DNA of 46,989 nt. It comes from Sharpea porci. GTDB lineage: Bacteria > Bacillota_I > Bacilli_A > Erysipelotrichales > Coprobacillaceae. Made by a program: the position numbers and the translations under genes. The notes below the pieces were generated by a model. It was not told where the DNA came from and did no database searches. It saw only the letters and a list, made by a program, of their open reading frames with translations. Numbering within the stretch: position 1 is the first letter of the stretch; the number at the start of each line of letters is the position of its first letter. Shown here in pieces: positions 233 to 24,928 of this stretch. Where the stretch lies: positions 1 through 46,989 of the forward strand of contig NZ_VUNM01000020.1 in assembly GCF_009695655.1 (NCBI RefSeq), read 5' to 3'.

Positions 233-349
233 AGAACAACAACTCCTCTCCTGACTAACCTAGACAAGCACTATACCTAACACGGTATTATACCACTCTG
301 GTTATTGCAAAACAGCTATTTCACTTGTTCTACTTTTATACTAGCATCA
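233..349 (-). mobile_element. Probable 5' end of the IS3-type element
   Basis: Non-coding stretch between the transposase ATG and the group II intron fragment. It carries a TATAAT-like box and the transposase ribosome site. The element edge is placed near 349, where the intron-like sequence stops and a TG-starting sequence (TGATGCTAGTATAAAAGTAG on the minus strand) begins, as IS3 ends usually do. The opposite end is not in the window, so the boundary is inferred. Confidence 0.45.
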
Positions 350-536
350 AGCCTTATATCCGGTTTCTGTACGTAGGCCCGGGATTTTGCCACACGGTTA
401 GTATGTTCCCGCATCCGGCTTCCTTCCGTTGACACCTCACGATGTCCACGTTGCCTTTGGCTAGCGCTTTGAATCATGCCGCTATACATGCGCAAGGGAC
501 TTTCACCCTCGAGTTATCACCCATGTCGGGTGTACA
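350..536 (-). mobile_element. Group II intron 5' fragment (domain I region), truncated
   Basis: On the minus strand this starts near 535 as GTACACCCGACATGGGTG and continues with GAGGGTGAAAGTCCC, a GTCAACGGAAGGAAGCC segment and ends ACAGAAACCGGATATAAGGC. These blocks occur in the same order in domain I of bacterial group II introns (family pattern from memory). No reverse transcriptase ORF follows; the sequence stops abruptly at the IS3-type element. The 5' end lies a few bases after the terminator hairpin of rclA, the kind of site favoured by class C introns, although the class itself was not determined. It is a remnant and cannot splice alone. Confidence 0.68.
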
Positions 537-21127: not shown

Positions 21128-21187
21128 TGACTTCAGTCATAAAATTCTCAGCGGGGAAACCCACATGCTTGTCTGTGGGAGGAACCG
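21128..21187 (-). repeat. Structured downstream end of the IscB element
   Basis: Hairpin CCCACA (21160-21165) with TGTGGG (21174-21179), enclosed by GCGG (21151-21154) and CCGC (21184-21187), plus the palindrome TGACTTCAGTCA (21128-21139). It lies just past the iscB stop. Confidence 0.65.
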
Positions 21188-21189
21188 CC

Positions 21190-22428
21190 TTATACCACCT
21201 TTCTTAATTCAATAAGCATATTTTTTCGCATTTCTAACATCTTAAGGTTCTTATATCCTACGGAAGCATTAACTTTAGTACCATCTAATAGTCTTAAATC
21301 CATTCTTCCAGTAGAACGTCTACCAAAAATAAAGCAGTTTTGACCTTTCCACTTTACTTTATCAAAAAGCCTAAATCCCATTACTTCGTATGATGCTTGA
21401 TTACGTTTTTTGATACCACCTTTGAGAATGGTGTTTTTATGTATTTGACGATTATGGCATCTTACTTTCTTTTGGTAATATACTATACCGTCTGATACTG
21501 CTAATGGATTACCACTAATACATCTTGCATCAATATAATGGTCTTTTAGCAAACCATTCTCGATACGAGTATTCTTTGTGATATATCCGTAAGTTAGGCT
21601 TACATTTGGATATAATTCCTTTAGTTTGTTATAGAAAGCCCATCGCATGATACCCACAAATGTAGCATCTCTAAAAGACATTCCTCGTTTTATGGTCTTT
21701 GGCAATTTTACAAATCCTTTATGATAACCAGTATGACAAGTTTCACATAAAGTAATTAGATTATTGGGAGCATCGCCGCCTGTATGTCTGCTTTCGATAT
21801 GATGAACATTTAGGATTTTGTCTTTGGACTTACCTTTACAACATTGGCAAGTATGACCATCACGAAAAAGCACATATTCACGGATATTCCAAAAGCCTAA
21901 CTGTTCGCCTTGCTGATAGTATGTACCGCTTATCAAGGGATTCTTAATCTTCCGTATATCGAATGATGCTACCTCTACAATAATTTTACTGATTGGTAAG
22001 ATTTCGTGTACTTTACGGATAACAGTCAAGTGACTATCTACCTTATTTTGTACCGAAGGTGCTAACCATCCGTCTGTACGCTTACGGTTATCAAAACGTG
22101 GTTTACGGTATCTGGTTTTGTGGTTTCTTCTGGTTCTACGATTCTGTCTACGTGTAGAAAGCAAATCCACAATATCGTTCCTAAGTTCCACATCAGACTC
22201 AAATAATACTTTGTTTTTTGTAGTTGCTGAAAGACCGATATGTTTACTTCCACTATCTACACCTAAAGAAATTTCTTGTGTATAATTCGTGCTACTATAC
22301 AACAGTTGTATTGTAAACGGACATTTTTTAATAACCTTTGCCTTTTTGGATTTCAACAGAATACGCACTTTAGCATGGTTTTCCGTAGGCATTAAAGGTT
22401 GTCCGTTTTGGTTTAAGACGTAAACCAT
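21190..22428 (-). CDS. iscB: IscB RNA-guided nuclease
   Basis: A 412-residue IscB, the transposon-encoded ancestor type of Cas9. In order: the PLMP domain (NGQPLMP, 8-14), RuvC-I (LGVDSGSKHIGLS, Asp58), the Arg-rich bridge helix (RRQNRRTRRNHKTRYRKPRF, 93-112), RuvC-II (IIVEVASFD, Glu152), the HNH domain (CQCC ... NVHHIESRHTGG ... LCETCH, His209/210 with zinc-type cysteines), RuvC-III (DHYIDA, His297 and Asp300) and a C-terminal domain. All catalytic residues are present, so both DNA strands could be cut. The start at 22428 follows AAGGGGG. The frame is open upstream to 22581, but that part reads through the RNA scaffold and is rejected. The length suits the family. Confidence 0.92.
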   Translation of the reverse strand: MVYVLNQNGQPLMPTENHAKVRILLKSKKAKVIKKCPFTIQLLYSSTNYTQEISLGVDSGSKHIGLSATTKNKVLFESDVELRNDIVDLLSTRRQNRRTRRNHKTRYRKPRFDNRKRTDGWLAPSVQNKVDSHLTVIRKVHEILPISKIIVEVASFDIRKIKNPLISGTYYQQGEQLGFWNIREYVLFRDGHTCQCCKGKSKDKILNVHHIESRHTGGDAPNNLITLCETCHTGYHKGFVKLPKTIKRGMSFRDATFVGIMRWAFYNKLKELYPNVSLTYGYITKNTRIENGLLKDHYIDARCISGNPLAVSDGIVYYQKKVRCHNRQIHKNTILKGGIKKRNQASYEVMGFRLFDKVKWKGQNCFIFGRRSTGRMDLRLLDGTKVNASVGYKNLKMLEMRKNMLIELRKVV

Positions 22429-22431
22429 AGT

Positions 22432-22610
22432 ACGTACCCCCTTTCTTAAACCCATCAAAGGATTTAGTTTCTCGCTCCGAAGAGCGGTTGGTGTACCATC
22501 GCCAATGTTACTAAGAGGTTTCTTCGTCGGCAACACGGTTCCTATACCACAGAACGGTTTAATCACCGACCTTAGAGCCACAGACTTGGTACTACATCCG
22601 TGGGTAACTA
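22432..22610 (-). ncRNA. omega-RNA scaffold of IscB
   Basis: Directly upstream of iscB on the same strand lies a dense set of stems, as expected for the RNA partner. They are CGCTC-TTCG-GAGCG (22473-22486), AAATCC/GGGTTT (22448-22465), and a long-range stem joining CTAAGGTCGG (22566-22575) to CCGAC (22526-22530) and CTTAG (22511-22515). The block runs to the iscB ribosome site, as in known IscB loci. The guide should lie at the 5' end (higher coordinates), derived from sequence outside the element. I cannot fix the 5' end from one sequence, and it may extend into the hairpins at 22653-22707. Confidence 0.7.
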
Positions 22611-22652
22611 TATATTCTCTCGTAACGTAGCCTTTGTTTTAAGGCTTAGGCT

Positions 22653-22707
22653 ACTCACTCTGGGTTGTTAGACAACCCCACGGGCTTGCCCGTGGGTATT
22701 AGTGAGT
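22653..22707 (-). repeat. Three-way-junction end of the IscB element
   Basis: The outer stem ACTCACT (22653-22659) with AGTGAGT (22701-22707) encloses hairpins GGGTTGT/ACAACCC (about 22662-22678) and CCACGGGC/GCCCGTGG (about 22679-22695). A separate AGCCTT/AAGGCT hairpin lies at 22629-22646. Confidence 0.7.
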
Positions 22708-22769
22708 GCAGTTCACCTATTAGTTGGATTTTTACATAATACATCGAACATCTCATTTGTACGTTCGTC

Positions 22770-23480: not shown

Positions 23481-23556
23481 TGAATCTATGTTTCATGATC
23501 CTTTTAAATTGTGCATAATATTATGGTCCGTCTCTCAGATAAAGGAGAACTTAGTA

Positions 23557-24928
23557 ATGAACAATAAAGAATTATGCTATATGCTGGATCTTGATCCTGA
23601 TACGGTTGAAAATGTGAATATCACCAGAAATGATGAGAAATATGAATTCAGGATAACCATGAAAAGACAGACCTATGAATGCCCTGAGTGTCACTCAAGC
23701 CATGTGAACATAAAGTCAAATAAAACAAAAAAAGCTAACAGGAGCTCAGTTCAATAACCGCCCTAGCACCTACATGGTCTCTTTCAAGCGTTTATGCTGC
23801 AAGGATTGCGGTACGTCTTTCTACGATCATGTTCCTCTGGCTGATGAAACGACAAAAATCGCCAAGGTAACCCAGCTGCATATCCTTGAGGATCTTAAGC
23901 CTTTTAACTCTGTCTTTGCATCTGTTGCAAGAAAATACGATATAAGCACGACGAAGGTCATCAGCCTTTTTGACGAGAACATTCAGGTAAGGAGACATCC
24001 GCTGCCACGAATACTTCTTATAGACGAGTTCTATTTTCAGAGACATAGCCAGCAGAAATATGCCTTCGTCATGATGAACTTTGAAAACAAAGTCATTGTT
24101 GATATCATCAATTCAAGATGGCAGAACGTCCTTAGTGACTACTTCTATTCAATAGATGCAGAGAAAGGAAAAGGCGAAAAAAGGGAAAAAGAAAAGGTAG
24201 AGTTTGTATGTTCGGATCTCTATGAGCCATATCGGAGCATCATAGCCACTTACTTCAAAAACGCTACCTATCTTGTTGATCATTTTCATGTTGTCAAGCT
24301 CGTAAATGATCAGCTCAATAATACTAGAAAAAGGGAGATGCGTAAACATTCTGACGACAAACAGTCAAAGGAATACAGACTCCTCAAATTCAGATACAGG
24401 CTTCTCATGCAGTACGGTCCAGCCATTGATATTGAGACATATAGATTCGATTCGATACTAGGCTACCATTGTGTCAATAAAACCGTGCTAGATGAGCTTC
24501 TTTCCATCAGTGATGATATAAAGGCCTTCTATGATGTCAAGGAGGCATTCATGGCCCTTGATGACATTGACGAGAAATCCGCAGCGGAACACGACCTAGA
24601 AAAGGAACTTGACGAAATAATCAACAGATTTCATCAGCTTGGGACGAAAGAAGGTGTGACAATCTCAAAAACCCTGAAATCCTGGAAAAGAGAATATCTC
24701 AATTCCTTCACATGGGTGAATGGAAGAAGAATTTCCAATGGACCCTTAGAAGGCAAGAACAATTACATCAAGAAGATACTCAGCAATGCCAATGGCTATA
24801 GAAATTTTAACAGGGCAAGAAACAAAATCATGTTTTCGCAGAATCTTCATAACGAATATGATTCCGGATTTAGTGACCTGTACATCGTTGACAAGATACT
24901 GAACAATAGAAAACAAAAAGCAAAATAA
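23557..24928 (+). pseudogene. ISL3 family transposase, frameshifted
   Basis: The N-terminal part starts at ATG 23557 (ribosome site AAAGGAG) and reads MNNKELCYMLDLDPDTVENV ... YECPECHSSHVNIKSNKTKK. It goes out of frame in a run of seven A at 23727-23733 and stops at 23757. The other frame continues from 23732 as KLTGAQFNNRPSTYMVSFKR, supplies the second zinc-ribbon half (CCKDC), then a helix-turn-helix (VARKYDISTTKVISLF) and the DDE catalytic region (LLIDEFYFQR, CSDLYEPYRS, VDHFHVVKLVN, and the C-terminal GPLEGKNNYIKKI). Joined, the product would be about 457 residues, full length. One extra A explains the break; slippage on the A run might still make some active enzyme. Confidence 0.88.

What the first reader, a model, noticed from the sequence alone, without database searches (positions are those of the whole stretch)
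22432..22720. IscB locus with a readable omega-RNA and unknown guide
An IscB with all RuvC and HNH residues intact is preceded by about 180 bp of nested stems running into its ribosome site. The 5' part should hold a guide copied from flanking DNA, so the element boundary fixes what it would target. A gut Firmicute IscB of 412 residues is also a compact nuclease scaffold of natural interest.
Basis: partly seen in the sequence, partly recalled or inferred. Interest (0 to 1): 0.62.

Follow-up and report, generated by a model that had tools for sequence, protein, structure and literature searches.

The report
IscB transposon with legible guide RNA
This is an intact member of a known family of small mobile elements that carry an RNA-guided DNA-cutting enzyme (IscB); both ends of the element and the guide it carries could be read, and its relatives turn out to sit unusually often exactly between a gene's ribosome-binding site and its start codon.

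Summary
Minus strand 22428-21190 encodes a 412-aa IscB (NCBIfam guided_IscB, E 2e-115). Upstream, 22706-22487 matches Rfam HEARO (the IscB omega-RNA) end to end at 115 bits. Two more hairpins lead into the ribosome site. Covariation across 40 relatives is strong. The scaffold edge is sharp at 22706, so the guide is 5'-UAAUAGGUGAACUGCA-3' (22722-22707, assuming the usual 16 nt). The other end lies at 21141, followed by ATGAC. The element is 1566 bp and has no transposase. Two relatives of other copies (a sister species, a phage-like contig) show uninterrupted sites where guide-side flank and ATG motif abut. One finding goes beyond the family description: the adjacent motif is ATGRY, and 35 of 69 relatives carry a Shine-Dalgarno-like motif at start-codon spacing (about 10% expected). 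Many copies therefore sit between a ribosome site and its start codon. I found no report of this, but the searchable literature was limited, and a smaller second set showed it in only 2 of 12.

The parts
21190..22428 (-). iscB coding sequence, 412 aa, stop codon included
   Evidence: NCBIfam NF040563 guided_IscB E 2e-115; Pfam RRXRR and HNH; solved IscB relatives; dN/dS 0.05-0.07
22487..22706 (-). omega-RNA scaffold (HEARO RF02033); its first base 22706 is the element's edge
   Evidence: 115.4 bits, full-length match; sharp edge in 22 relatives; covariation
22448..22486 (-). two further conserved hairpins (22486-22473 and 22465-22448) between the Rfam match and the ribosome site
   Evidence: paired changes among close relatives (for the first hairpin, for both by inspection of single folds)
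22437..22444 (-). iscB ribosome-binding site AAAGGGGG, 8 nt before the ATG
   Evidence: sequence itself
22707..22722 (-). predicted guide, 5'-TAATAGGTGAACTGCA-3', flanking DNA outside the element; the 16-nt length is taken from characterised IscBs
   Evidence: edge at 22706; no second match in the assembly within 3 mismatches
22676..22696 (-). terminal hairpin CCCACGGGCAAGCCCGTGGGG, identical to one at the end of TnpB elements in the same genome
21141..21189 (-). other end of the element with hairpin CCCACAGACAAGCATGTGGG (21179-21160), ending GAGAATTTT
   Evidence: conserved in close relatives; edge placed
21136..21140 (-). target-adjacent motif ATGAC, just outside the element
   Evidence: ATG[AG][CT] in all 21 relatives with both edges

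Best explanation
A non-autonomous IS200/IS605-type element of 1566 bp (22706-21141, minus) that carries iscB and its omega-RNA. Shown: both edges, RNA structure, the ATGRY motif beside the element, and guide-side flank abutting that motif in uninterrupted relatives of two other copies. Inferred: a Y1 transposase encoded elsewhere moves it; transcription that enters from outside makes guide, scaffold and iscB mRNA; IscB uses the guide to cut DNA reading TAATAGGTGAACTGCA followed by ATGAC, that is, the empty insertion site left by excision or present on a sister chromosome, so that repair copies the element back. The occupied locus is spared because CTCAC, not the motif, follows the guide there.
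For: Protein family and catalytic residues; HEARO match and covariation; edges; uninterrupted sites next to the motif; three copies in this genome with different flanks and absence from the syntenic locus of the sister species; purifying selection; shared terminal hairpin with TnpB elements and 19 Y1 transposase matches in the genome.
Against: No expression, cleavage or transposition data. No transposase inside the element. The empty site at the window's own locus could not be read to the base. The motif is inferred from insertion sites, not from a cleavage assay.
Confidence: 0.88

Rival explanations
1. A dead relic: the element no longer makes an active nuclease or RNA.
For: No transposase in the element; no minus-strand promoter consensus between the upstream gene and the element.
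Against: Intact ORF and catalytic residues, dN/dS 0.05-0.07, full-length HEARO structure over the gathering score. The selection measured is over the lineage, so a very recent loss is not excluded.
Confidence: 0.07
2. A host-adopted IscB with a fixed guide that regulates or defends, rather than a mobile element homing to its empty site.
For: No transposase in the element; long-term purifying selection.
Against: Three copies in this genome have three different flanks and therefore three guides; relatives have unrelated guides; absent from the same locus in the sister species.
Confidence: 0.05
3. Concerning placement at start codons: the surplus arises only because the motif contains ATG and insertions inside genes are purged, not because host transcription of the guide is favoured.
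For: The motif is ATGRY; purging of insertions within genes is expected; windows kilobases away are also mostly co-directional with iscB (52:10), so gene-block orientation contributes; in 12 further HEARO loci only 2 show it.
Against: Other ATGRY sites in the same flanks have a Shine-Dalgarno-like motif in only 9.8% of cases, so the motif alone does not explain 51%. Insertion before a start codon also cuts the gene from its ribosome site, so it is not plainly harmless.
Confidence: 0.5

Closest known systems
IscB with omega-RNA (OMEGA systems), such as OgeuIscB
   Same: PLMP-type N-terminus, split RuvC, RRXRR region and HNH; structured RNA upstream with a 5' guide; alignment to solved chains 7utn, 7xht and 11hr
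   Different: 412 aa against about 495; different motif (ATGRY here; NWRRNA for OgeuIscB from memory, NTAAA for OrufIscB in PMC13180657)
HEARO RNA, Rfam RF02033
   Same: Full-length match of sequence and structure, same position upstream of the nuclease gene; HEARO and IscB are argued to be one family in PMC9755519
   Different: Two conserved hairpins follow the end of the Rfam model
IsrB (HNH-less relative)
   Same: NTGA motif and hairpins next to the ribosome site (PMC9581776)
   Different: IsrB lacks HNH and nicks; this protein has an intact HNH
IS200/IS605 TnpB elements in the same genome
   Same: Identical 21-bp hairpin at the guide-side end
   Different: They encode TnpB; that hairpin lies downstream of tnpB, whereas here it opens the RNA upstream of iscB

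Membership tests
IscB RNA-guided nuclease | RRXRR/RuvC and HNH domains in one protein of the guided_IscB family | tested here: met
   385 bits against a cut-off of 175
IscB RNA-guided nuclease | Catalytic residues of RuvC and HNH | tested here: met
   D58, E152, H209/H210, H297, D300 by alignment to solved IscBs
IscB RNA-guided nuclease | omega-RNA upstream of the gene on the same strand | tested here: met
   HEARO full length, 115 bits; covariation
IscB RNA-guided nuclease | Guide at the RNA's 5' end, drawn from the flank | tested here: met
   Conserved scaffold edge with unrelated upstream sequence; three guides in three copies. Presence in an actual RNA not tested
IscB RNA-guided nuclease | RNA-guided cleavage next to a motif | not testable with these tools
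   Motif inferred from insertion sites only
HEARO RNA (RF02033) | Score above Rfam's gathering threshold with the consensus structure | tested here: met
   115.4 against 83 bits
IS200/IS605 element | Subterminal hairpins at both ends and insertion beside a short fixed motif without target duplication | tested here: met
   Hairpins at 22696-22676 and 21179-21160; ATGRY on one side only; guide flank and motif adjoin in the uninterrupted GH32 gene
IS200/IS605 element | Encodes its own Y1 transposase (autonomous form) | tested here: not met
   None in the element; 19 matches elsewhere in the genome. Filed as non-autonomous only

The most novel reading that the evidence does not exclude
In this clade the IscB motif (ATGRY) doubles as a start codon: elements settle between a gene's Shine-Dalgarno sequence and its ATG, in the gene's direction, so that the host promoter transcribes the guide, which lies outside the element; the guide is then the gene's own ribosome site.
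Probability: 0.4. Interest if true: 0.6.

Novelty: new member of a known kind. Interest (0 to 1): 0.38.

Why it matters
As a locus it adds one well-delimited IscB of about 410 aa with a predicted guide and motif, ready for a cleavage test. More generally, the start-codon placement of its relatives suggests how an RNA whose guide lies outside the element gets transcribed, and that can be tested on the many IscB elements already sequenced.

Tried and rejected
Base-exact empty site at the window's locus: the sister species is syntenic but its intergenic DNA does not align. Empty site for copy C1: the sister gene's start is too diverged. Second target for the guide in the own genome: none within 3 mismatches. 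Viral relatives of the genes downstream of L100 and L101: self-matches only. A plain motif scan for the left edge failed in divergent relatives and was replaced by a search for the first helix, which is unreliable for very divergent loci; low-scoring ones were left out. A phylum search for HEARO gave only 5 genomes, so a large independent test of start-codon placement was not possible. I looked for matching ends around the genome's Y1 transposase genes; the hairpin was not found within the stretches held, so a shared transposase remains a suggestion. Literature: no paper in the held library was found that reports IscB insertion at start codons, and none pairs HEARO with ATGA. From memory only, the paper that first described HEARO noted insertion at ATGA or GTGA; I could not check it here.

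Full report
What is there. On the minus strand, 22428-21190 encodes a 412-aa protein that scores 385 bits against NCBIfam guided_IscB (cut-off 175), carries Pfam RRXRR and HNH and aligns to solved IscB chains at E of about 1e-50. RuvC D58, E152, H297 and D300 and the HNH histidines H209/H210 are present. dN/dS against five relatives is 0.05-0.07.

The RNA. Rfam HEARO matches 22706-22487 over its full length at 115 bits. On a sequence-only alignment of 40 relatives the HEARO structure keeps 86.9% of cells paired, against 33-41% when the partners are slid, with 260 cells changed on both sides against 16-64. Two more hairpins follow, 22486-22473 and 22465-22448, with paired changes among relatives, and end just before the AAAGGGGG ribosome site. 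A comparable arrangement, with the Shine-Dalgarno sequence in the terminal hairpin, is described for IsrB (PMC9581776). That HEARO RNA and IscB omega-RNA are one thing is stated in PMC9755519.

The edges and the guide. In 22 relatives the alignment is nearly invariant from CTCACTAATACCC onward and unrelated before it, which fixes one edge at 22706. The three copies in this genome show the same edge with three different flanks. The guide is therefore the flank: 5'-TAATAGGTGAACTGCA-3' if it is 16 nt long, the length known for characterised IscBs (own knowledge). The other end is GAGAATTTT|ATGAC at 21141/21140, giving an element of 1566 bp. Among 21 loci with both edges the motif is ATG in all, then A (17) or G (4), then C (18) or T (3). 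This is in keeping with the NTGA reported for IsrB (PMC9581776).

Uninterrupted sites. Copy C67 lies in a GH32 gene. The sister species has the gene whole, reading CCAGATTGTGAAT|ATGACAAC where C67 reads CCGGATACTGAAT|element. The viral contig L168 reads TTGTTGGAGGAATTAAATT|ATG where L118 reads TTGTTGGAGGTAAAAAT|element|ATG. Both show guide-side flank and motif side by side, as the homing model requires. At the window's own locus the sister species has the same neighbouring genes and no element, but its intergenic DNA is too different for a base-exact reading. The occupied site should not be a target, because CTCAC and not ATGAC follows the guide. No other copy of guide plus ATG exists in the assembly within 3 mismatches.

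Mobility. The element has no transposase. The genome has 19 Y1 transposase matches. The 21-bp hairpin at the guide-side end is identical to one at the end of TnpB elements in the same genome, which suggests, without proving, a shared transposase.

Placement at start codons. Of 69 distinct flanks, 35 have a Shine-Dalgarno-like motif 4-11 nt before the edge, most often at 8-9 nt, against 10.9% of other windows in the same flanks and 9.8% of other ATGRY sites there. With a stricter motif the surplus holds separately in cellular genomes (16 of 41 against 7.8%) and viral contigs (14 of 25 against 7.0%). In 7 of 21 loci with both edges the flank has the motif and the ATG opens an ORF of 40 codons or more, against 4% of control sites. 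Downstream genes run with iscB in 47 of 50 scorable cases and upstream genes in 38 of 44; windows kilobases away are biased too (52:10), so this reflects orientation relative to whole gene blocks.

Limits of that result. The motif set was chosen after the pattern was seen, so the p-values (about 1e-17 for the first test) overstate the case; the strict motif was a second choice on the same data. The 69 loci were found by similarity to this protein and are not independent of one another. In 12 further HEARO loci from four other genomes only 2 had the motif; five of those are near-identical copies in one genome. For the window's own copy the flank has AGGTGA at suitable spacing, but the ORF after it is only 14 codons, so it need not be a gene start. 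I propose, as inference, that a guide lying outside the element must be transcribed from outside and that sites just downstream of a host promoter, in sense orientation, are favoured. Selection against insertions inside genes is a serious alternative.

Verdict. A well-preserved, ordinary member of a known family whose guide and motif can be read. The start-codon placement of its relatives is the part worth following.

Noticed in passing
L003 (G000:C67:19951-21448): A second IscB copy of this genome sits in a GH32 gene whose middle (about 1 kb) is missing; the loss appears to run between two ATGAC sequences, one of them the motif next to the element.
   Followed up: partly
L004-L006 and L013-L023: Ends of TnpB elements in this genome and in relatives carry the same 21-bp hairpin as the IscB element's guide-side end.
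   Followed up: partly
window 23488-24928: An ISL3-family transposase gene upstream of the PNPOx gene appears split in two reading frames (89 and 384 aa), so probably broken by a frameshift.
   Followed up: no
window 308-446: Rfam group-II-D1D4-3 intron match on the minus strand, 38.4 bits against a threshold of 32.
   Followed up: no
L061 5001-6218: A 61% identical IscB lies in a contig labelled Methanobrevibacter thaueri (a MAG), pointing to transfer into archaea or to a binning error.
   Followed up: no
L028, near 4747: This relative is inserted between two diverged copies of a roughly 45-bp repeat that each begin ATGACACGG.
   Followed up: partly
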